From an uncultured Prevotellaceae bacterium (GTDB taxonomy: Bacteria > Bacteroidota > Bacteroidia > Bacteroidales > Bacteroidaceae), in contig CAMNHM010000019.1 of assembly GCA_946539475.1 (NCBI GenBank), forward strand, positions 1 through 27,848: 27,848 nt of DNA, in the 5' to 3' direction. Numbering within the stretch: the stretch's first letter is position 1; each line of letters begins with the position of its first letter. Below, piece by piece: positions 10,194 through 26,969 of the stretch. A program made the position numbers and the translations under genes. The notes below the pieces were generated by a model. It ran no database searches and was not told the DNA's origin. It saw only the letters and a list, made by a program, of their open reading frames with translations.

Positions 10194-11837
10194 ATGACTA
10201 TCAAGAAATACAAACGACAACTGATAGGCTTGTCATTTATCATTTGTCAGCTATCATTCAGCCTGGCACTCACTTCCTGCAGCGACTGGGACGACCACTA
10301 CGAAGGTGCACAGACAGGCACCGGGCAGACGCTGTGGCAGCAGATGCAGCAGATGCCGGAGCTGAGCGACTTCTGCCAGGTACTCGAGCAGACGAAGGTG
10401 TTCCGCATGCATAGGAAGACGCCCGTCAGCTACGCCCAGATGCTCGACGGCGGACAGTCGTTCACCGTCGTGGCACCCGTCAACGGCACCTTCAACCGCG
10501 ATTCACTCCTTCGACTCGTACAGACCAACCAGGGCGACTCCGTGGTCGAGAAGTTCTTCGTGCTGAACCACCTCTCGCGATCGACGAGCTCAGTGAAGGA
10601 GGCGCCACAGTCGATGCTCATGCTCAACTCCAAGCATGTCTCGATGTCGGCTGGAGCCATCGAGGGCGTTGCCCTGCGCGCATCCAACGTGCATGCCAAG
10701 AATGGCGTGCTGCACGTCGCCGAGCGTCCGCTACCCTACGAGTACAACCTTTACGAGGCCCTCTGCGACATGCCGTCGCTGAGTGCCATCGGCTTCTTCC
10801 TCCGCCAGTACGACGAAGACTACTTCGATGCCGATGCCTCCGTCTCCAGCGGCATCGTCGAGGGTGTGCCAGTGTATGTCGACTCGGTCGTCATCGAGCG
10901 CAACCGCATGCTCCAGCGTATAGGCCTCATCAATGCCGAGGACTCCACCTACTGGATGGTCGTCCCGACCACCAACGGCTGGAATCGTGCCTACGCAGAG
11001 GCAACGAAGTATTTCGTCTACGACGCCACGGTGCTCAAGCGCGACTCCATCCAGCAGTACTGGACCAACCGTGCCTTGCTCGACGATGCCGTCTTCAACA
11101 TGACCGACCAGCGCTCCGTCAACGACTCGCTCCTCTCCGTGCCCTACCTCAACTGGCGCACGGGATGGGTCAGCGGAAAGCCCGTCTACCATGTCTTCAA
11201 GCAGCCCTTCGCACAGGGAGGCATCCTGCACGGAGCACAGGCCGTGGCATGCAGCAACGGCACCCTCTACACCGTCGACGAGTGGCCCTTCAACCCCCTG
11301 ACGACCTATTTCACCGAGCTATGGGCCGAGGGTGAGAGCACGTGGCTCATCACCTCAGAGAAGGACTGTTCCTACAACGCCCGCCGACAGGTCGCCGACA
11401 GCATCTCCGAGAATGCCTACCTGCAGATCGTGCCCCGCACGACGACCTCAAACTGGACCCTCAACTTCCGCCTGAACAACACGCTGGCTGGCGACTACGA
11501 CATCTGTCTCGTCATCCTGCCGAAGGCTGTCAGCAACCAGGTCGATCCCGACCTGCGCCCCTGCAAGTTCAAGGCCACGATCAACTATGTCGACGAGGCA
11601 GGAAAGCAGCAGTCGTTCAACTTCGACAACCGGCAGTTCACCAGCGACCCCGAGCGCGTCGACACCATCGTCCTCGCCGAGGCCTTCCGCCTGCCCGTCT
11701 GCAACTACGATCAGACTGACATCAAGGTAAGCCTCACCGTACAGTGCAATATCCTTGCCCGCGAGACGTCACGCTACGCCCGCGAGATGTACCTCGACTG
11801 CATCTATCTCCGTCCACGAACTTCTAAATCCGAATAA
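10194..11837 (+). CDS. FAS1-domain lipoprotein (third of the operon)
   Basis: A 547-residue lipoprotein with lipobox LTSC (cysteine 29) followed by SDWDDHYEG, a common opening of Bacteroidota FAS1 lipoproteins. FAS1 unit 1 runs about 42-185 (LWQQMQQMPELSDFCQVLE, FTVVAPVNGTFNRDSLL, KFFVLNHLS, NGVLHVAERPLPY). Unit 2 runs about 185-385 (NLYEALCDMPSLSAIGFFL, YWMVVPTTNGWNRAY, HGAQAVACSNGTLYTVDEW). The rest (390-547) is strand-rich (NWTLNFRLNNTLAGDYDICL, CIYLRPR) like the C-terminal part of the preceding gene, so the two are probably paralogues or partners. The hydrophobic core of the signal peptide (SFIICQLSF) is encoded by four 7-base repeats and is nearly identical in DNA to that of the second SusD gene. 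The next SusC gene starts 3 bases after the stop. Confidence 0.85.
   Translation: MTIKKYKRQLIGLSFIICQLSFSLALTSCSDWDDHYEGAQTGTGQTLWQQMQQMPELSDFCQVLEQTKVFRMHRKTPVSYAQMLDGGQSFTVVAPVNGTFNRDSLLRLVQTNQGDSVVEKFFVLNHLSRSTSSVKEAPQSMLMLNSKHVSMSAGAIEGVALRASNVHAKNGVLHVAERPLPYEYNLYEALCDMPSLSAIGFFLRQYDEDYFDADASVSSGIVEGVPVYVDSVVIERNRMLQRIGLINAEDSTYWMVVPTTNGWNRAYAEATKYFVYDATVLKRDSIQQYWTNRALLDDAVFNMTDQRSVNDSLLSVPYLNWRTGWVSGKPVYHVFKQPFAQGGILHGAQAVACSNGTLYTVDEWPFNPLTTYFTELWAEGESTWLITSEKDCSYNARRQVADSISENAYLQIVPRTTTSNWTLNFRLNNTLAGDYDICLVILPKAVSNQVDPDLRPCKFKATINYVDEAGKQQSFNFDNRQFTSDPERVDTIVLAEAFRLPVCNYDQTDIKVSLTVQCNILARETSRYAREMYLDCIYLRPRTSKSE
10230..10257 (+). repeat. Heptamer repeat (x4) encoding a signal-peptide core
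   Basis: Four consecutive 7-base units, TTGTCAT, TTATCAT, TTGTCAG, CTATCAT, sit inside the signal peptide of the third FAS1 lipoprotein and encode its hydrophobic core. The surrounding block 10221-10261 matches 15091-15131 in the second SusD gene at 38 of 41 positions. Confidence 0.8.
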
Positions 11838-14800: not shown

Positions 14801-15026
14801 TCTCCGCCTGAGCAATGTCACACTCTCATGGCACCTGCCCATTCAGAGCACCTACCTGCAGGGCATCACCGTCTGGGGATCGGCACAGAACGTCGTCACC
14901 CTGACGCGATACCTCGGCAGCGATCCCGACTGCGCCATTCCCGGTGCCATCCTCGCACAGGGCATCGACCGCGGCCTCCTCGGACAGGGGCGCAGCTTCT
15001 CGCTCGGAGTGGACATCAATTTGTAA
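11841..15026 (+). CDS. SusC/RagA-family TonB-dependent outer-membrane transporter (second pair)
   Basis: A 1061-residue precursor: signal peptide ending LASATLAAQ (residue 20), carboxypeptidase-regulatory-like domain about 33-105 (VKGRVVDAATGQPLAGVIVSA, a canonical opening), plug with VGDIESVQVMKNATALYGAK and GVILIKTKR, and a long beta-barrel. The plug phrase usually read as L/I-R-G before the conserved PLxVVDG is here MLVSGINSL, then PLIVIDDVIMD, so the arginine is replaced by serine and the VDG glycine by aspartate. The last residues are SLGVDINL, ending in leucine not phenylalanine. It starts 3 bases after the FAS1 gene, and its SusD follows after a 37-base heptamer-repeat spacer. It is only distantly like the first SusC in this operon, so the operon probably handles two ligands or two forms of one ligand. 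Confidence 0.95.
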   Translation: MKKHIFSAILLLASATLAAQEKTVVSTSHSQTVKGRVVDAATGQPLAGVIVSAYGNQRQTTMTGDDGCYELSVPDYVRSLAMRVDGYNLQQTAINDGRADAQLYSDAFRADYNRTGTARLTSEAADFANTSELSIDPLIAQQLGADVRSVSRGGIPGMGSQMLVSGINSLNANAQPLIVIDDVIMDMQYSREMLHDGYFNNILANFNVGDIESVQVMKNATALYGAKGANGVILIKTKRNKSMATKIDVTINGRYELVPRLPEMMSADAYRLYTTELLAGRTNPILLGKMKYLNSDPTYYYYNQYHNETDWTKEVYHNAFSQNYGINVQGGDDIASYNLSVGYSLGNSTLKENDYSRFNMRLNSDINITRRLNVRFDASYSDVDRSLRDDGAPADALSTVVTSPGFIALAKAPFLSPYAFDKFGKVSHYLAEADDYLEGKFQGRGRLANPVSILEYGDGKNRNSFGNRLITFAITPRYDFNRHLSLSEHFTLGLVNTNENYYLPIKGVPTFYVEGLDEATTLQNVARSLAARQTSIQSDTRLTWRYTSGAHGLNLQGGVRYLSNDYKLTSQTGYNSGNDKTPNMSGSLQFKSTGGADDKTREITWYALADYSYSDRFYLDAGLSAQASSRFGDDAGGMKLFGTVWGLFPSIEGAWVVSNERWLAAVPAVNFLRLSLGFDVTGNDDLDYTASRSYFVARRMLGESVSGKVIGNIGNTDLQWETTRRLTAGLAANLLDNRLSLRFNVFKGWTSNLLSLRQLAWTSGLQENWSNDGKLQNTGFDLSLDAKVLALRDFSWELGASAGHYKNEVTALPNADRAVETDIYGATVLTKVGMPVGVFYGYQTDGVYATTAGAAADGHYVEKQNGARQYFEAGDMRIRDLDGNKLIDAADRTVIGDPNPDIYGNIFTTLTYRQLKLSATMTYSLGGDIYNYQRSLLEGGSLFLNQTTAVENRWNTEGQSTDMPRVAYTDPIGNARFSDRWIEDGSYLRLSNVTLSWHLPIQSTYLQGITVWGSAQNVVTLTRYLGSDPDCAIPGAILAQGIDRGLLGQGRSFSLGVDINL

Positions 15027-15063
15027 TTAGTAATGTGTAATTAGGAATTAGTAATTAGAAATT
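15024..15063 (+). repeat. Stop-anchored heptamer array between SusC and SusD genes
   Basis: The array starts exactly at the TAA stop of the SusC gene: units TAATTAG, TAATGTG, TAATTAG, GAATTAG, TAATTAG in perfect 7-base register to 15058, then AAATT leading into ATG at 15064. The whole intergenic gap is repeat. It contains no Shine-Dalgarno-like sequence. Confidence 0.9.
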
Positions 15064-16770
15064 ATGATTACCAAGATAAGCAAAGGACGACTGATAGGTT
15101 TTTCATTTATCATTTGTCAGCTATCATTTAGTGTAGCATGCTCCGACATCCTTGACACCTCGTCGGAGCTAGTCGAGTTTGCCGAGGACAACACCCTCGA
15201 CCACCCCACCGACTCCGTCTATAGCGTCATGGGCATCATCAACCGCATGCAGGTCATCGCCGACCGTTCCGTCATCCTCGGCGAGCTGCGAAGCGACCTC
15301 GTAGCCCCCACCGACGCTGCCAACGCCGACCTGAAGCGCCTAGCCGCTTTCGACTTCTCACAGCCCAACCGCTACAACCGCATCAGCGACTACTATGCCG
15401 TCGTCAACAACTGCAACTTCTTCCTTGCCAACGTCGACACCATGCTGCAGCGACGCGGACGCACCCTCTTCCGCTACGAATATGCCGCCGTAAAGGCATT
15501 CAGGGCATGGACATACCTCGAGATGGTGAAGAACTACGGCAACGTGCCGCTCGTCACAGAGCCCGTCATGACCGAGCGAGAGGCCTCAGAGGCACTCTCA
15601 CAGCGGCTGTCGACCATCAAGGAGGTATGCGACTACTTCATCGACGACCTCACACCCTATGCTCTCGTCGAGCACCCGGAGTATGGCGACATCGGCGGCA
15701 ACGCCTCCAGCGAGTTCTTCCTGCCCATGAGGGCACTCCTCGGCGACCTCTGCCTGTGGGCAGGACGCTACCAGGAGGCAGCACGCTGGTATCATGACTA
15801 CCTCAACGAGCGGACGGAATTCATCACGATGAACACCGCCAACCGCGTACGCTGGACCAGCGTCACCGACTTCCAGCGGCCATCCGATGCATATAATGTC
15901 AGCGGCAGCGAGGTGATCAGCCGCATACCCATGGAGTCGCGAGTCTTCGACGGCATCGTCTCCGACCTCGAGAACGTCTTCTCCTCCACCCGCGAGAACA
16001 ACTACTTCTACCAGGTGGCACCAGCGCAGGGCATACGACGGCTGTCGGCCAGCCAGGTCTACTGCATGGAGTACAAGACCGAGATTACCACCGACACCGT
16101 CTACCCGCCACGTAGCGGATACTCCGACGAGCTCCTCGTCGGCGACCTACGGCTCTACTCCAACTACCGGCTGACGTCGCAGGGAGGACAGGACGAGTAC
16201 TCCGAGTTCTCCACCCTTCGCCAGACCATCGACAAGCTCTCGCGAACCAGCATCACCACCTACCGCCGCGCAATGGTCTACCTGCGCTATGCCGAGGCAC
16301 TCAACCGTGCACGACTGCCGCAGTCGGCCTTCGCCGTGCTGAAGTACGGACTCTGTGCCGAGAACGTCCGCGCCTATGTCGACAGCCTGGAGCGCGTCGA
16401 TGCCGGCGACCTCATCACCTTCGACGAGACAGCCTTCACACGCGAGACCGTCATCGGCATCCACTCCCTCGGATCCGGCGACAGCCAGTGCAACGCCTAC
16501 TACACGCTGCCTGTGCCGCCTACCGCCCTTGCCACCCGTCAGGACACCATCGACTACCAGATACCCATCGTAGAGGATTGCATCGTCAACGAGATGGCGC
16601 TGGAGGGAGCCTTCGAGGGCTACCGCTTCTACGACCTCATGCGCGTCGCCCTGCGGCGTGGCGACCCGGCCTACCTGGCCAACCGCGTATGCCTGCGCAA
16701 CGGCGAGGCTGACGACGCGCTGCGACAACTACTCCTCGACACCGCCAACTGGTACCTGCCTGCAGAGTAG
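15064..16770 (+). CDS. SusD/RagB-family surface lipoprotein (second pair)
   Basis: A 568-residue lipoprotein with lipobox SVAC (cysteine 26), then SDILDTSSELVEF. SusD marks: ADRSVILGELRSDLVAPTDA, the YYAVVNNCNFFLAN helix, AVKAFRAWTYLEMVKNYGNVPLV, LGDLCLWAGRYQEAARWYHDYL, AMVYLRYAEALNRARLPQ, EMALEGAFEGYRFYDLMRVALRRGD, and an end at NWYLPAE. The usual late PxxSExxxNPxLxQNP segment is absent; the gene instead ends soon after the FxGxRxxDLxR-like helix, which is one of the known SusD end types. It completes the second transporter pair and is the last gene before the operon terminator (stop at 16768-16770, A-tract begins at once). Signal-peptide DNA is shared with the third FAS1 gene. Confidence 0.93.
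   Translation: MITKISKGRLIGFSFIICQLSFSVACSDILDTSSELVEFAEDNTLDHPTDSVYSVMGIINRMQVIADRSVILGELRSDLVAPTDAANADLKRLAAFDFSQPNRYNRISDYYAVVNNCNFFLANVDTMLQRRGRTLFRYEYAAVKAFRAWTYLEMVKNYGNVPLVTEPVMTEREASEALSQRLSTIKEVCDYFIDDLTPYALVEHPEYGDIGGNASSEFFLPMRALLGDLCLWAGRYQEAARWYHDYLNERTEFITMNTANRVRWTSVTDFQRPSDAYNVSGSEVISRIPMESRVFDGIVSDLENVFSSTRENNYFYQVAPAQGIRRLSASQVYCMEYKTEITTDTVYPPRSGYSDELLVGDLRLYSNYRLTSQGGQDEYSEFSTLRQTIDKLSRTSITTYRRAMVYLRYAEALNRARLPQSAFAVLKYGLCAENVRAYVDSLERVDAGDLITFDETAFTRETVIGIHSLGSGDSQCNAYYTLPVPPTALATRQDTIDYQIPIVEDCIVNEMALEGAFEGYRFYDLMRVALRRGDPAYLANRVCLRNGEADDALRQLLLDTANWYLPAE
15100..15127 (+). repeat. Heptamer repeat (x4) encoding a signal-peptide core
   Basis: Units TTTTCAT, TTATCAT, TTGTCAG, CTATCAT encode the core of the second SusD signal peptide (FSFIICQLSF). 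Near-identical to 10230-10257. Confidence 0.8.
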
Positions 16771-19328: not shown

Positions 19329-19724
19329 TCATAAGATTTCCAGAAACTGTGCCGGAGTAATTACATGGGGTGATGCAGGATAATGCTTCAAATTTCCTGT
19401 CACAAGAAACGAGCCCTCATGGCTCAGCGAGATTTCATAGAACACACGGTCGTCCTCGTCAGGCATCGGATTATCATAAAAGGATCTTGATGCCTCTATA
19501 CCATTCTCAACAATGAATGATATAAGCGTATCTGCCGTTTCCTCCAGAATCGGAAACTTCGCACGATGCAGCACATCCTCATACTCGACGATGATGTCAG
19601 CGTCGTACAACGGAACAAACGCATGCTCCAACAATTGCCTCACGACCTTGGTTGTGGCGGCTTCTGAGTTGTGCGTAATCAATGCAGACACCAGCACATT
19701 GGTATCTATCACAGCGTAAATCAT
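19329..19724 (-). CDS. PIN-domain toxin (COG1569-type) of a type II toxin-antitoxin module
   Basis: A 131-residue protein starting MIYAVIDTNVLVSALIT. PIN-domain acidic residues are seen at Asp7 (DTN), Glu47/Glu49 (VEYEDVLHR) and 89-92 (DEDDRVFYE), and the late VTGNLKHYP fits the PIN family's T/S-x-N/D closing motif. PIN toxins are Mg-dependent RNases that cut tRNA, rRNA or mRNA; the target is not readable here. The gene starts 15 bases after the antitoxin stop, the normal antitoxin-first order, so both are driven by the promoter at 20107-20138. All catalytic acids seem present, so the toxin should be active. Confidence 0.9.
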   Translation of the reverse strand: MIYAVIDTNVLVSALITHNSEAATTKVVRQLLEHAFVPLYDADIIVEYEDVLHRAKFPILEETADTLISFIVENGIEASRSFYDNPMPDEDDRVFYEISLSHEGSFLVTGNLKHYPASPHVITPAQFLEIL

Positions 19725-19739
19725 ACCGGCTGTTTCTGT

Positions 19740-20051
19740 TTACATAGCATTTCCGTCATTCCGTCGCCTTTCTTCCCTTGCGGCACGTATCTCCTCATTG
19801 ATTTCATCCAATGTCATCTCATGCTCCTGGCTGGCCTCAGCACTCTTACGCTGTTGCAGAAACATGTCAAGCGCACTGGGCTGGGCCAACCTTGCCCCCC
19901 TGATGGTAAACGGGATGCTGCGACTTCTGACGACTGCCTTCACGAAGATGTTGAATGCCGTGTTGGCACTCATGCCAAACTGCTCACAGAGTTCATCGAA
20001 CTGCGACTTCATCTCTGAGTCTATTCTTACTGTTACTGCCGACTGTGCCAT
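19740..20051 (-). CDS. Ribbon-helix-helix antitoxin, RelB/DinJ-like
   Basis: A 103-residue protein. Residues 5-45 (VTVRIDSEMKSQFDELCEQF, then GMSANTAFNIFVKAVVRSRS IPF) are a RelB/DinJ-type ribbon-helix-helix: strand, helix, G-M-S turn, helix. The C-terminal half is charged and helical (EMTLDEINEEIRAAREERRR), the usual toxin-wrapping tail. DinJ-like antitoxins are most often paired with RelE/YafQ toxins; here the partner is a PIN protein. It should repress its own promoter with the toxin; the palindrome at 20082-20094 in the leader is the likely site. Start ATG at 20051 has AAAGG about 9 bases upstream. Confidence 0.9.
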   Translation of the reverse strand: MAQSAVTVRIDSEMKSQFDELCEQFGMSANTAFNIFVKAVVRSRSIPFTIRGARLAQPSALDMFLQQRKSAEASQEHEMTLDEINEEIRAAREERRRNDGNAM

Positions 20052-21515: not shown

Positions 21516-23591
21516 CTACTGGTCCGCCTCGGCAAACTGTCGGAAATAGTTGATGCAGTGGTCGCGCCACTGGCGGGCGTTCTGTTGCTGATGGTCGAGG
21601 CGATCACTGACCTCGCGATGGCGCTGAGGATCGACATAGGGACGCATCTGCTGCCAGGTGGCTACATAGGCGTCGACCTTCTCCACACCCTGACGATAAT
21701 GGCGCTGGAGACTCTGCCAGAGCGTCGAGCCATCAGCCATGGGGAAGTCCCAGGGCAGGTGGTGGAACCAGAGGAGGAGCTCCTCAGGACAGGTGGCAGG
21801 ATCGTCGAAGAGTGAGGCATAGGGCTCGCGATACTGCTGCGAGGCTCCCGTGCCACCATGAGTGGAGCGGTTGAAGCCGATGCCGCCCTTGTCTGCCTTA
21901 TGATACCAGACGGGCTTCCACTCATCGGGGAAGTTGGGCTGATTGCCCTCTGGCTCAGGACCGTAATGGTGGTCGCCCTTGAAGATATGGTGTAGGCCCA
22001 GGGGCATCATATAGTCGACGCAGGCCTCGCGGCTGGTCTCCATGATGTCGGTCATCGGCACGAGGAAACGCTCGTCGTCGGTGAACGTCTGCTGCAGCCA
22101 TTCGCGGGCAATGGTACGACTGCTGAGCGTGGGATCCCAGGCCATTCGTCCGAAGACGTACCAGTTGGCTTGCGAGAAGTGATGTCCGCACCAGTTGGCA
22201 TCGAGTCCGATGTTGGCGACGCCGGCGATGGCGGGGAAGTTGAGAGTTGAGGGTTGAGAGTTGAGAGACTTTTGTCCCTCACTCCTAACTCCTAACTGTT
22301 GAAAGAACTCCTGCCACATCGTGCCTAGATAGACGAGGTGACGGCTCTGTCCGAGGTACTCCTGAGTAATCTGCAGCTCGGGCATCATCGGCGTCTGGTG
22401 CAGCTGATCGAAGAGCGGGCTGTAGGGCTCACGCGGTTGGAAGTCGAGGGGTCCGTTTTTAATCTGGATGATGACATTGCTACGGAACTTGCCATCGAGG
22501 GGCTTAAACTCGTTGACGGCTTTCATCACGCGATCGGTGGCTCCCTCATGATAGCCGTAGACGAAGGCTCGCCACATGACGATGCCCTTGTGGGGCGCCA
22601 GAGCGTCGGCCATCATATTGGCGCCCTCGGCGTGCGACCGCTTATAGTCGCCAGGGCCAGGCTGTCCCTCGCTGTTTGCCTTGACGAGGAAGCCTCCGAA
22701 GTCGGGTATGAGGCGGTAGATCTCGTCGACCTTCGCCTTCCACCACTGTGCCACTTGCGGGTCGAGAGGGTCGGCGGTGCTGAGCACCCGTCCTCCGTTG
22801 ACACTCTCTACGGCTACCTTCATCGGCGATGCGAAATTGACTGAGAGGAAGACGCGGATGCCGTAGGGCCTCAAGACGTCAGCGATAGCACGTACGGAGT
22901 CGAGATACTCCGTAGCGAGCATTCGCGGCGAGGCGTTGACATTGTTAAGCACCGTGCCGTTGATACCGATGGAGGCATTGGCGCGGGCGTAGTCTTTCAA
23001 GAGTGAAGAGTGAAGAGTGAAGAGTGAAGAATTTGCTTCCGCATCAAATGAAGAGTTGAGAGTTGAGAGTTGAGAGTTCCAGAAGATGCTTCGGCCGGCA
23101 TAGCCACGCTCGATGGTACCGTCGAGATTGTCCCAGTGGTTGAGCAGGCGTAGGGCGAAGGTGGGGTGCTGCTCGCAGGGGTTGATGGGCTGGTGTGTGG
23201 CCTGAAGTCGCAGCAGGTGATAGACGGCGTAGAGCAGTCCACGGTCGTTGGCAGCCTCGATGGCAAGTCCTCCGCCAGGTATGCGGCGGATGGCGAAGCC
23301 GTCGTCGGCCGGCATCTTATCGTTGACGAAGAGGCTGATGGTCGGCGTGCCGCGCCAATAGCGGCGCAGCTCGTCGACGGCGATGGCGGTGGTGGGAGTC
23401 TCGACGCTGCACTTGACGCTGACCGTGCTCTCCGTCGGCTGCATGCGCAGCCACAGCCGATGGCCGTCCTCCTGCGCTGCTACGGGGCTTAATGACAAAT
23501 GAAAAATGACGAATGACAAGAATGTCACCATCGTCCATCGGCTGTTCTTCACTCTATCTGCCCTCATTCTGCTATTCGTTTCGTTTCTCAT
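21516..23591 (-). CDS. aguA: Alpha-glucuronidase, glycoside hydrolase family 67
   Basis: A 691-residue exported enzyme that removes (4-O-methyl)glucuronic acid from the ends of xylo-oligosaccharides. GH67 marks: RLLNHWDNLDGTIERGYAG (148-166), ANASIGINGTVLNNVNA, GGFLVKANSEGQPGPGD with Glu308 as the likely acid, IQIKNGPLDFQPREP with Asp383 and LQITQEYLGQ with Glu411 as the likely base pair, and IGLDANWCGHHFSQANWYVFGRMAW. Two stretches do not look like the family: residues 172-198 and 432-453 are encoded largely by 7-base repeats and replace surface loops. The signal-peptide core (LSFVIFHLSLS) is repeat-encoded too. Start: ATG at 23591 gives a long N-terminus; ATG at 23567 (MRADRVKNSRW) is at least as likely. 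It is last in a unit with the SIMPL and esterase genes. Confidence 0.93.
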   Translation of the reverse strand: MRNETNSRMRADRVKNSRWTMVTFLSFVIFHLSLSPVAAQEDGHRLWLRMQPTESTVSVKCSVETPTTAIAVDELRRYWRGTPTISLFVNDKMPADDGFAIRRIPGGGLAIEAANDRGLLYAVYHLLRLQATHQPINPCEQHPTFALRLLNHWDNLDGTIERGYAGRSIFWNSQLSTLNSSFDAEANSSLFTLHSSLLKDYARANASIGINGTVLNNVNASPRMLATEYLDSVRAIADVLRPYGIRVFLSVNFASPMKVAVESVNGGRVLSTADPLDPQVAQWWKAKVDEIYRLIPDFGGFLVKANSEGQPGPGDYKRSHAEGANMMADALAPHKGIVMWRAFVYGYHEGATDRVMKAVNEFKPLDGKFRSNVIIQIKNGPLDFQPREPYSPLFDQLHQTPMMPELQITQEYLGQSRHLVYLGTMWQEFFQQLGVRSEGQKSLNSQPSTLNFPAIAGVANIGLDANWCGHHFSQANWYVFGRMAWDPTLSSRTIAREWLQQTFTDDERFLVPMTDIMETSREACVDYMMPLGLHHIFKGDHHYGPEPEGNQPNFPDEWKPVWYHKADKGGIGFNRSTHGGTGASQQYREPYASLFDDPATCPEELLLWFHHLPWDFPMADGSTLWQSLQRHYRQGVEKVDAYVATWQQMRPYVDPQRHREVSDRLDHQQQNARQWRDHCINYFRQFAEADQ
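22239..22298 (-). repeat. Heptamer repeats inside the GH67 gene (loop 2)
   Basis: Plus-strand units GTTGAGA, GTTGAGG, GTTGAGA, GTTGAGA (22239-22266) and CTCACTC, CTAACTC, CTAACTG (22278-22298), two different heptamer types joined by 11 bases. In frame they give a low-complexity stretch with SLNSQPSTLNF. Confidence 0.85.
23001..23078 (-). repeat. Two heptamer arrays inside the GH67 gene (loop 1)
   Basis: Plus-strand GAGTGAA four times (23001-23028, perfect) and GAGTTGA three times plus a partial copy (23053-23078), separated by 24 bases. In frame they encode SSLFTLHSSL and NSQLSTLNSS, seven-residue-period low complexity. Confidence 0.9.
23492..23519 (-). repeat. Heptamer repeat (x4) encoding the GH67 signal-peptide core
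   Basis: Plus-strand units ATGACAA, ATGAAAA, ATGACGA, ATGACAA; on the coding strand these read TTGTCAT-like units giving the hydrophobic run LSFVIFHLSL. Confidence 0.8.
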
Positions 23592-23629
23592 TTCTCATTC
23601 CTCATTTCTCATTCCTCATTTCTCATTTA
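23583..23629 (-). repeat. Stop-anchored heptamer array between SIMPL and GH67 genes
   Basis: On the minus strand the array starts at the TAA stop of the SIMPL gene: TAAATGA, then GAAATGA, GGAATGA, GAAATGA, GGAATGA, GAAATGA and a decayed GAAACGA, all in 7-base register. It covers the intergenic gap and reaches the beginning of the GH67 frame; the upstream copies each carry an ATGA that overlaps start and stop codons. Confidence 0.9.
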
Positions 23630-25758: not shown

Positions 25759-26937
25759 ATGAAAAAGAAAACATTTTTAATGGCACTTGCCGCAGCCGGC
25801 ATGCTGGTGTCGTGCGGCGGAGGCGGCGGAATGCCTAGCTTCGGCGACAATGAGTTTCCTGTGGAGGAGGTGAAGATCTCTTCCGCCGAGATGCAGACGA
25901 CGTACCCTGCCGTGATCAACGGCATCCAGGACGTGGAGATACGTCCGAAAGTTTCAGGATTCCTTACTCAGATCAATGTAACCGAGGGCCAGACGGTATC
26001 GGCAGGCCAGCTGCTTTTCGTGATTGACAACGAGACCTATCAGGCTCAGGTGCGTCAGGCTCAGGCAGCCGTGAACACCGCCCAAAGCCAGGTGAACACC
26101 GCCAAGCTGACCTTCGACAACTCTCAGCAGCTCTTCGACAGCCACGTCATCGGCGAGTATGAGCTGCAGACAGCCGAGAATACCTATAAGAGTGCTCAGG
26201 CCCAGCTGGCCCAGGCTCAGGCAGCCTTGGCCTCCGCCCGTGAGGCCCTTAGTTTCTGCTACGTGAAGAGCCCTGCCCGCGGCGTCGTCGGCACGCTGCC
26301 CTTCAAGAAGGGTGCCCTGGTGAGCGCCTCGAACGTGCTGACTCACGTGAGCGACATCAGCCAGATGGAGGTGTACTTCTCGATGACGGAGAAGGACATG
26401 CTCGCCCTGTCGAAGACAGAGGGCGGTCTGAAGAGCGCCGTGGAGCAGTTCCCGCCCGTGAAGCTGCAGCTGGTCGACGGCACTACCTACGGCTACGACG
26501 GCCGTGTGGCAGCCATCAGCGGCGTCATCGACCAGGCGACAGGCTCCGTTCAGCTGAAGGCCCACTTCCCCAACCCCGAGAGCCTGCTGAAGAGCGGTGG
26601 CTCAGGTACGATCATCGTGCCACGTTCGGACAGCGGTGCCATCGTCATCCCTCAGAGCGTCGTCTCGGAGGTGCAGAACAAGAAGTTCGTCTACGTGCTC
26701 AACGACAGCAACAAGGTGGTCTACACCGAGATTACCGTTGCCCCGCAGAACGACGGTGTGAACTACATTGTGACCGGAGGTCTGAACGTGGGTGAGAAGT
26801 ATGTGACGAACGGCATCACCAAGCTCTCCGACCAGATGGAGATTGTGCCCATCACCCCGCAGCGCTACCAAGAGAAGATTCAGGAGCAGGCCAAGGCCAT
26901 GAGCGCCGGCGATATTGTGAATGCGATGAAGAAATAA
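25759..26937 (+). CDS. RND efflux pump periplasmic adaptor (membrane-fusion lipoprotein)
   Basis: A 392-residue lipoprotein (lipobox MLVSC, cysteine 19) of the AcrA/MexA type. The lipoyl half-motifs are VEIRPKVSGFLTQINVTEGQTVSAGQLLFVID and YVKSPARGVVGTLPFKKGALVS, flanking a helical hairpin at about residues 93-170 rich in Q, A and N (QAQVRQAQAAVNTAQSQV, AQAQLAQAQAALASAREAL). The beta-barrel region follows (QMEVYFSMTEKDML), then the membrane-proximal part (VVSEVQNKKFVYVLND, GGLNVGEKYVTNGITKL). It bridges the inner-membrane pump, whose gene is next, with a TolC-like channel that is not in this window. The stop codon begins a heptamer-repeat spacer to the pump gene. Confidence 0.95.
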   Translation: MKKKTFLMALAAAGMLVSCGGGGGMPSFGDNEFPVEEVKISSAEMQTTYPAVINGIQDVEIRPKVSGFLTQINVTEGQTVSAGQLLFVIDNETYQAQVRQAQAAVNTAQSQVNTAKLTFDNSQQLFDSHVIGEYELQTAENTYKSAQAQLAQAQAALASAREALSFCYVKSPARGVVGTLPFKKGALVSASNVLTHVSDISQMEVYFSMTEKDMLALSKTEGGLKSAVEQFPPVKLQLVDGTTYGYDGRVAAISGVIDQATGSVQLKAHFPNPESLLKSGGSGTIIVPRSDSGAIVIPQSVVSEVQNKKFVYVLNDSNKVVYTEITVAPQNDGVNYIVTGGLNVGEKYVTNGITKLSDQMEIVPITPQRYQEKIQEQAKAMSAGDIVNAMKK

Positions 26938-26969
26938 ATCGCAAAACGTAAATCGTAAATCGTAAATCA
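26935..26969 (+). repeat. Stop-anchored heptamer array between adaptor and pump genes
   Basis: Units TAAATCG, CAAAACG, TAAATCG, TAAATCG, TAAATCA in exact register from the TAA stop of the adaptor gene, then AC and the pump ATG at 26972. Confidence 0.9.

What the first reader, a model, noticed from the sequence alone, without database searches (positions are those of the whole stretch)
23583..23629. Heptanucleotide tandem repeats that start exactly at stop codons and fill operon gaps (also 15024-15063 and 26935-26969)
Three unrelated junctions (SusC to SusD, SIMPL to GH67, efflux adaptor to pump) are filled by degenerate tandem repeats, each with period 7 but with a different unit (TAATTAG, GAAATGA/GGAATGA, TAAATCG). 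In all three the 7-base register begins with the TAA stop of the upstream gene. Three out of three in perfect phase with the stop codon is unlikely by chance. It suggests a process that makes or inserts 7-base repeats at gene ends, or selection for a repeat spacer in translation coupling. The units differ, so this is not one mobile sequence copied around. I know of no described mechanism, but cannot search.
Basis: seen in the sequence. Interest (0 to 1): 0.85.

Follow-up and report, generated by a model that had tools for sequence, protein, structure and literature searches.

The report
Repeat arms of elements at stops
Short seven-base repeats sitting right behind genes in this Prevotella-like bacterium look like the end pieces, or leftovers, of a widespread family of tiny DNA elements that carry a four-helix protein, which could explain a puzzling repeat type seen in several groups of bacteria.

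Summary
The arrays are real. Period 7 stands out: 6 arrays in the window, 166 in 1.44 Mb (80 Prevotellaceae loci plus window), none in shuffles. The phase with stop codons is also real. Of 94 arrays starting within 7 nt of a stop, 46% have the stop codon in register, against 1-5% in the six other registers. At the adaptor-pump junction, with its conserved stop, it is 13 of 21 against about 1 expected.

The arrays are probably not mere spacers. Related genomes carry small PF05635 genes (23S rRNA intervening-sequence / four-helix-bundle protein) in the same kind of operon junction. Their flanks are inverted copies of each other, mostly period-7 arrays, in 68 of 85 loci; like for like, 23 of 30 against 4 of 184 size-matched genes. 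Junctions are found empty, with a solo array, with a gene-less inverted repeat, or with the gene. Two window arrays match such element arms including their unique inner motifs.

My reading: solo arrays are arms or remnants of these elements. This is well supported for two window arrays and inferred for the other two reported ones... of which one has an inverted partner. Mobility and the cause of the stop phase are not shown.

The parts
15024..15071 (+). SusC-SusD junction: heptad array beginning with the SusC stop (TAATTAG...) and ending in AATTATGATTAC, within which the SusD start codon lies
   Evidence: Sequence; array; best match to a PF05635-element arm (L304) score 33, unit-permuted null mean 22.5, max 29 of 20; the end pattern TAATTAGWAATTATGATTA is in 4 of 28 genomes, 21 copies, three of them beside PF05635 genes
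22999..23042 (+). AGTGAAG-type array plus AATTTGCTTCCGC: one arm of an element of the GAAGAATTTGCTWCCGC family, lying inside the GH67 reading frame
   Evidence: Array; exact 17-mer at 23026-23042, 0 in shuffles; arm match to L145 score 38, permuted max 30
23052..23078 (+). AGAGTTG array next to that arm, inside GH67; no arm match beyond the null
   Evidence: 22 against permuted max 23
22238..22297 (+). Two period-7 arrays (AGTTGAG 22238-22267, CCTAACT 22277-22297) inside GH67; no arm match beyond the null
   Evidence: 24 against permuted max 28
23584..23629 (-). SIMPL-GH67 junction: AAATGAG/GAATGAG array beginning at the SIMPL stop (23629-23627)
   Evidence: best arm match 31, equal to the permuted max, so the tie rests on the inverted partner
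23491..23519 (+). Inverted partner of the array at 23584-23628 across about 64 bp; read on the minus strand it codes the FLSFVIFHLSLS stretch near the GH67 N-terminus
   Evidence: inverted match score 19; translation
26935..26969 (+). Adaptor-pump junction: TAAATCG array beginning with the adaptor stop
   Evidence: arm match borderline (24 against permuted max 23); same junction holds a PF05635 element in L011 and L078
15099..15130 (+). Degenerate heptad array coding the FSFIICQLSFS stretch near the SusD N-terminus; near-copy at 10230-10258 in another gene
   Evidence: direct match score 27 between the two

Best explanation
The 7-base arrays are the arms, or remnants of arms, of a family of small inverted-repeat elements (about 0.4-0.7 kb with the gene). 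Full copies carry one gene for a 23S-rRNA-IVP / four-helix-bundle protein (PF05635) between two copies of one array type in inverted orientation. A parallel set carries a PD-(D/E)XK 'GxxExxY' gene (PF13366) with arms of period 7-11. The elements occupy operon junctions between a stop and the next start; gene-less inverted repeats and solo arrays occupy the same junctions in other species. Shown: architecture, place, dispersal of one arm family, matched arms, phase with the stop. Inferred: (a) the elements move or once moved; (b) solo arrays arise when the body and one arm are lost; (c) units change by slippage while the two arms stay alike, for example by copying across a hairpin; (d) the phase with the stop arises because the join uses short homology between the stop codon and the TAA/TGA/TAG in the unit, and selection keeps a stop at that place.
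For: PF05635 in 24 of 25 Prevotellaceae genomes, 0 of 14 control genomes. Flanks inverted copies (score >=18): 68 of 85 of the 119 matches (130-bp flanks); like for like with 120-bp flanks 23 of 30 against 4 of 184 genes of 90-170 aa and 6 of 500 other genes; two of those 4 are themselves an element gene: L078's own PF05635 and L014's PF13366. Of 40 elements with 7-nt arrays on both sides 34 share the unit inverted, 1 direct; between elements 126 of 1560. PF13366: 22 of 30 of 78 matches. Left arm at the upstream stop in 43 of 51 assessable elements, 19 of 43 in register against 1.2 expected. Four junctions in all states. One arm family: 208 motif copies in 21 of 28 genomes, reversed-pattern control 0, 26 of 30 behind the same array, 9 gene-less inverted pairs; exact copy in the window. 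Cyanobacterial plasmids: heptad arrays 18 in 4480 bp beside PF05635 genes, 9 in 28650 bp elsewhere.
Against: 17 of 85 PF05635 loci lack matched flanks. In a phylum-wide sample only 10 of 29, and in plasmids 6 of 17, reach the same score. PF05635 proteins group by site, not by genome, so frequent recent jumping is not shown. Units are shared between junctions more within the 20-kb loci (30 of 178) than between genomes (943 of 14452), but P. communis shows little excess (53 of 699). For two of the three reported window arrays the arm match is at or near the permuted null (31/31 and 24/23). The 30 dispersed motif copies examined had no PF05635 gene between them. No target-site duplication or excision was tested. 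The window's own genome was not available.
Confidence: 0.6

Rival explanations
1. Local replication slippage with a 7-nt preference makes the arrays at each junction, starting from the stop codon itself; they are kept as A/T-rich, unstructured leaders for re-initiation of translation. PF05635 genes merely sit in such junctions.
For: Heptamers are a common class in prokaryotes and slippage has been proposed (Mrazek 2007 as reported in PMC4679880, passages). Stop in register but start codon not. Arrays are A/T-rich, C-poor. Units differ between species at one junction.
Against: Matched inverted arms (34 of 40 inverted, 1 direct). Non-repeat inner motifs go with arrays at dispersed places. The same units recur in unrelated junctions and as element arms.
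Confidence: 0.22
2. The arms act as RNA: a long hairpin in the operon mRNA, cut by RNase III as in 23S rRNA intervening sequences, which makes insertion tolerable.
For: Same protein family and terminal inverted repeats as the IVS, which is excised by RNase III (PMC4990558, passages).
Against: Arm mismatches are not G.U-biased on the sense strand: 44 wobble-type against 72 A.C-type in 45 elements (p 0.012 in the other direction), 91 against 119 in 69 with gene-less ones.
Confidence: 0.1
3. A REPIN/RAYT system: the arrays are repeats moved by a Y1 (REP-associated) transposase.
For: Dispersed single and inverted-pair copies look like REP/REPIN; Y1_Tnp (PF01797) is in 18 of 25 genomes.
Against: Of 17 assessable Y1_Tnp genes 1 has inverted flanks; of the 12 printed rows one shows a weak heptad array on one side.
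Confidence: 0.03
4. Chance: A/T-rich gaps give spurious repeats and the stop phase is a choice of register.
For: None beyond the A/T-richness of the gaps.
Against: Shuffled gaps give 0-0.3 period-7 arrays against 102-154 observed; the six other registers are the control for phase.
Confidence: 0.01

Closest known systems
23S rRNA intervening sequences (IVS) with S23p / IVP protein, e.g. Coxiella (PMC4990558, passages)
   Same: PF05635 gene of about 120 aa between terminal inverted repeats; element of about 0.4 kb; proposed there to be a mobile or selfish element
   Different: Found here in mRNA operon junctions, not in 23S rRNA; arms are tandem arrays whose unit differs between copies; gene-less and solo forms exist; RNase III cutting untested
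TAACTGA heptamer direct repeats of Beggiatoaceae, Cyanobacteria and five Bacteroidetes (MacGregor 2015, PMC4679880; outline, one section, passages)
   Same: 7-nt direct repeats, mostly intergenic and co-directional, some overlapping the stop of the upstream gene
   Different: That work treats one unit, stresses start codons and a translational regulator, and notes no inverted partner arrays or PF05635 genes in the parts I read
REPIN/RAYT systems (recalled)
   Same: Full element with gene, inverted pairs without gene, and single copies, mostly between genes
   Different: Gene is PF05635 or PF13366, not Y1_Tnp; arms are tandem arrays
Diversity-generating retroelement protein Avd
   Same: Related four-helix protein: weak hits to Avd and bAvd; kinship noted in PMC10053308 (passages)
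   Different: Below the Avd and bAvd cut-offs; a reverse transcriptase was not searched for

Membership tests
23S rRNA intervening sequence (IVS) | Encodes a PF05635 / TIGR02436 protein | tested here: met
   L011 and L078 junction ORFs E 6.5e-37 and 6.3e-38, TIGR02436, solved relative 2gsc E 2.5e-17. Not so for the window's arrays, which hold no such gene.
23S rRNA intervening sequence (IVS) | Terminal inverted repeats | tested here: met
   68 of 85 loci
23S rRNA intervening sequence (IVS) | Lies inside a 23S rRNA gene | tested here: not met
   The four junctions studied lie between protein-coding genes; gene names by my reading
23S rRNA intervening sequence (IVS) | RNA excised by RNase III | not testable with these tools
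   needs RNA data
Bacterial heptamer repeats (TAACTGA and kin) | Tandem 7-nt units, mainly intergenic | tested here: met
   166 arrays; gaps are 9% of sequence, 86 arrays wholly and 31 partly in gaps, 49 in genes
Bacterial heptamer repeats (TAACTGA and kin) | Unit TAACTGA itself | tested here: not met
   Window units are TAATTAG, AAATGAG, TAAATCG types
REPIN/RAYT | Y1_Tnp gene flanked by the repeats | tested here: not met
   1 of 17 with inverted flanks
Diversity-generating retroelement | Avd above cut-off | tested here: not met
   42.5 of 80 bits, bAvd 34.5 of 40 bits
Diversity-generating retroelement | Reverse transcriptase and template/variable repeats nearby | not tested
   no search made

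The most novel reading that the evidence does not exclude
A new class of mobile element: PF05635 (and PF13366) proteins maintain or spread elements whose two arms are short-period arrays that turn over quickly yet stay matched in inverted orientation, and that land on stop codons of operon genes. Their leftovers would be a source of the long-known but unexplained heptamer repeats of Bacteroidota and Cyanobacteria.
Probability: 0.4. Interest if true: 0.88.

Novelty: new variant of a known kind. Interest (0 to 1): 0.74.

Why it matters
Heptamer repeats in bacteria have been described without an agreed source, and PF05635 and GxxExxY proteins are common proteins of unknown role. A tie between them gives both a testable role. 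It would also show how operon gaps, stop codons and even N-terminal leader stretches (arrays read as FIICQLSF-type sequences) can be built from element remnants.

Tried and rejected
Scan of the window's own genome: not possible (would not lay the file; no genome held). I used 80 related loci and stretches of other genomes.

Idea that the array simply supplies the stop when an ORF runs into it: true for some elements (L280, L288, L295), rejected as the general cause, because at the adaptor, SerC and FrdA the end of the protein and the stop position are kept in species with and without arrays and 13 of 21 adaptor arrays are in register.

Idea that units are selected to hold stop codons: 126 of 154 coding-strand units do, but shuffling each unit's letters gives 116.3 on average, maximum 130, so composition explains most of it.

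mRNA hairpin: no wobble excess. RAYT: 1 of 17. Frequent jumping within genomes: weakened by the tree, where PF05635 proteins group by site (serA 100/100, pepD 99/83, SDR 100/99, RND 94/82, frdB only 56/10; 37 rows, of which four loci occur twice).

Rows dropped: PF05635, 85 of 119 matches examined; the 34 others, many of them partial, weak, in long ORFs or with stops, were not fetched. PF13366, 30 of 78; ORF starts there were set by a motif rule. Y1_Tnp, 30 of 42 fetched, 17 assessed. Motif copies, 30 of 208. Plasmids, 17 of 28 records. Phylum-wide sample: the 29 new loci that the tool handed out, best scores first. Junction tally: L039 (adaptor-pump) and L210, L213, L215 (frd) left out; L216 and L217, fragments of FrdB, not used. 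Gene calls are from a home-made caller. Related species are counted as independent, so p-values are too small.

Literature searches listed only part where many papers matched (15 of 38; 25 of 140; 20 of 1,619), and the library holds open-licence papers only.

Full report
Observation. The three arrays exist at the stated places. The window has six period-7 arrays (score >=14) and none at other periods from 2 to 30 apart from multiples of 7. It is Prevotella-like: its efflux-adaptor protein is 89% identical to one on a rumen Prevotellaceae contig. No genome is held for it, so I used 80 loci around the orthologous adaptor (with the window 1.44 Mb) and 800 kb sampled from the complete Prevotella communis genome.

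Period 7 is special. In loci plus window there are 166 period-7 arrays, against 35 for period 8 and 33 for period 22, and none of period 7 in one dinucleotide shuffle of each sequence. In gaps between genes (score >=10) the counts for periods 7, 8, 9 and 10 are 154, 57, 21 and 17, and 1-2 for periods 3-6; shuffled gaps give 0.3-1.3. P. communis gives 42 in 800 kb, E. coli none in 150 kb. Gaps are 9% of the sequence; 86 of 166 arrays lie there, 31 partly, 49 in genes.

The stop phase is real. I took the 184 arrays (score >=9) that lie wholly between a stop and the start of the next co-directional gene, built the unit from the array alone, and extended it across the stop. Of 94 that begin within 7 nt of the stop, 46% predict the stop codon exactly; the six other registers give 1-5%. 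The last sense codon shows no clear phase, and arrays near a start codon predict it in 3%. In gaps of at least 70 nt, 20 of 106 arrays start 0-4 nt after the stop (4.8 expected), while 7 end 0-4 nt before the start (4.9 expected). At the adaptor-pump junction, where stop and C-terminus are conserved, 13 of 21 are in register against 0.95 expected.

Same junction, different content. At the adaptor-pump junction (79 loci and the window) 19 gaps are short without array, 24 hold a solo 7/8-nt array, 11 an array plus inverted repeat, 6 another inverted repeat, 2 a gene, 18 other. The solo arrays have different units in different species. The gene in L011 and L078 is PF05635, 23S rRNA-intervening sequence protein (E 6.5e-37, 6.3e-38), alias TIGR02436.

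The element. PF05635 is in 24 of 25 Prevotellaceae genomes, 1-15 matches each, and in 0 of 14 control genomes. Its genes often stand between co-directional genes. Of the 85 loci examined (of 119 matches), 68 have flanks that are inverted copies of each other (score >=18, 130-bp flanks); the best array is of period 7 in 42 upstream and 44 downstream flanks. With 120-bp flanks the first 30 loci give 23, against 4 of 184 other genes of 90-170 aa and 6 of 500 others; of those 4, one is L078's own PF05635 gene and one a PF13366 gene. Where both sides have a 7-nt array (40), 34 share the unit inverted and 1 direct; arms of different elements match in 126 of 1560. PF13366 ('GxxExxY') genes show the same plan in 22 of 30 loci (of 78 matches), with periods 7-11. 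Left arms of PF05635 elements start at or before 10 nt from the upstream stop in 43 of 51 assessable cases; 19 of 43 have the stop in register, 1.2 expected.

Other junctions. serC-serA, 30 species: 5 PF05635, 7 solo array, 8 gene-less inverted repeat, 8 short, 2 other. korA-korB, 30: 9 GxxExxY, 2 solo, 2 inverted repeat, 11 short, 6 other. frdA-frdB, 22: 3 PF05635, 1 solo (weak), 2 inverted repeat, 9 short, 7 other. By eye, gene-less copies share arms with gene-bearing ones of the same genome: L266 with L131 (G022) and L275 with L163 (G006).

Ties to the window. One arm family ends in GAAGAATTTGCTWCCGC. It has 208 exact copies in 21 of 28 genomes, up to 47 in one, and none of the reversed pattern. 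Some copies flank PF05635 genes, as G008:C85:19 and 452 around the gene at 78-377. Of 30 copies examined, 26 follow a heptad array; 9 are gene-less inverted pairs and 21 single; none of the 30 had the gene. The window holds an exact copy at 23026-23042 behind its AGTGAAG array, inside GH67, and matches an element arm with score 38 (permuted maximum 30). The SusC-SusD array ends in AATTATGATTAC like arms L304 and L320 (score 33, permuted maximum 29); the pattern is in 4 of 28 genomes. The SIMPL-GH67 array has an inverted partner at 23491-23519, but its arm match equals the permuted maximum (31), and the adaptor-pump array is borderline (24 against 23). For these two the element origin is inferred.

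Wider reach. PF05635 is in 61 of 80 Bacteroidota genomes. Of 29 such loci 10 have inverted flanks (score >=18) and 16 an array of period 7, 8 or 14; of 17 plasmid loci (16 cyanobacterial, one Riemerella) 6 and 13. In the cyanobacterial loci heptad arrays are 12.8 times denser within 140 bp of the gene than elsewhere (18 in 4480 bp, 9 in 28650 bp). Some of these genes stand inside CRISPR operons, between cas10 and a cmr3-family gene and between cas6 and cas4.

How it may work. PF05635 proteins group by site rather than by genome, so at these sites they are inherited or home to one site. At the pepD-like site the units differ between species yet agree between arms (GAGGAAG/GAGGAAG in L135, AGGTACG/CGAGGTG in L137). 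Arm mismatches show no G.U excess on the sense strand (44 against 72), which speaks for upkeep as DNA. My account of the phase is inference: the stop triplet is the short homology at which element and gene end are joined, or at which the body is later deleted, and selection keeps a stop there. It predicts phase at stops only, as seen. Local slippage as the source of some solo arrays remains possible. Units are shared within loci more than between genomes (30 of 178 against 943 of 14452), but P. communis shows little excess (53 of 699).

Literature. Heptamer repeats: MacGregor 2015, PMC4679880 (outline, one section, passages), which reports Mrazek 2007. IVS with S23 protein and RNase III: PMC4990558 (passages). 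PF05635 and Avd: PMC10053308 (passages). A four-helix-bundle gene 35 nt behind guanylate kinase in Flavobacterium columnare, tabled there among phage elements: PMC5524665 (passages). No paper tying PF05635 or GxxExxY to heptamer arrays turned up.

Noticed in passing
window 10230-10258, 15099-15130, 23491-23519: Heptad arrays read in frame code hydrophobic N-terminal stretches (FSFIICQLSFS in two proteins, FLSFVIFHLSLS in GH67), as if element arms had been turned into leader sequences.
   Followed up: partly
L153-L182: PF13366 (GxxExxY, PD-(D/E)XK) genes in 24 of 25 genomes, with inverted arms of period 7-11 (e.g. ATCCGTGTA types) in 22 of 30 loci.
   Followed up: partly
L259, L261, L270, L272, L197, L203, L008, L022 (junctions): A GC-rich gene-less inverted repeat (CCCCTCCC..GGGAGGGG type) in the same operon junctions; a separate family by eye.
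   Followed up: no
L222, L225, L239 (korA-korB), L013 and L064 (adaptor-pump): A REP-like hairpin sequence (GCGCTTTTACAAAGCGTAGCGACTAAAAG type) in two different junctions of several species.
   Followed up: no
L183, L188, L190 (cyanobacterial plasmids): PF05635 genes inside CRISPR operons: between cas10 and a cmr3-family gene, and between cas6 and cas4.
   Followed up: no
L001-L080 and window: Besides period 7, periods 22 (33 arrays), 18 (23) and 21 (20) are also raised; the 21 counts may partly be in-frame or multiples of 7.
   Followed up: no
window 19329-20051: Two adjacent small genes on the minus strand that look by eye like a toxin-antitoxin pair (PIN-like and RelB-like); not searched.
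   Followed up: no
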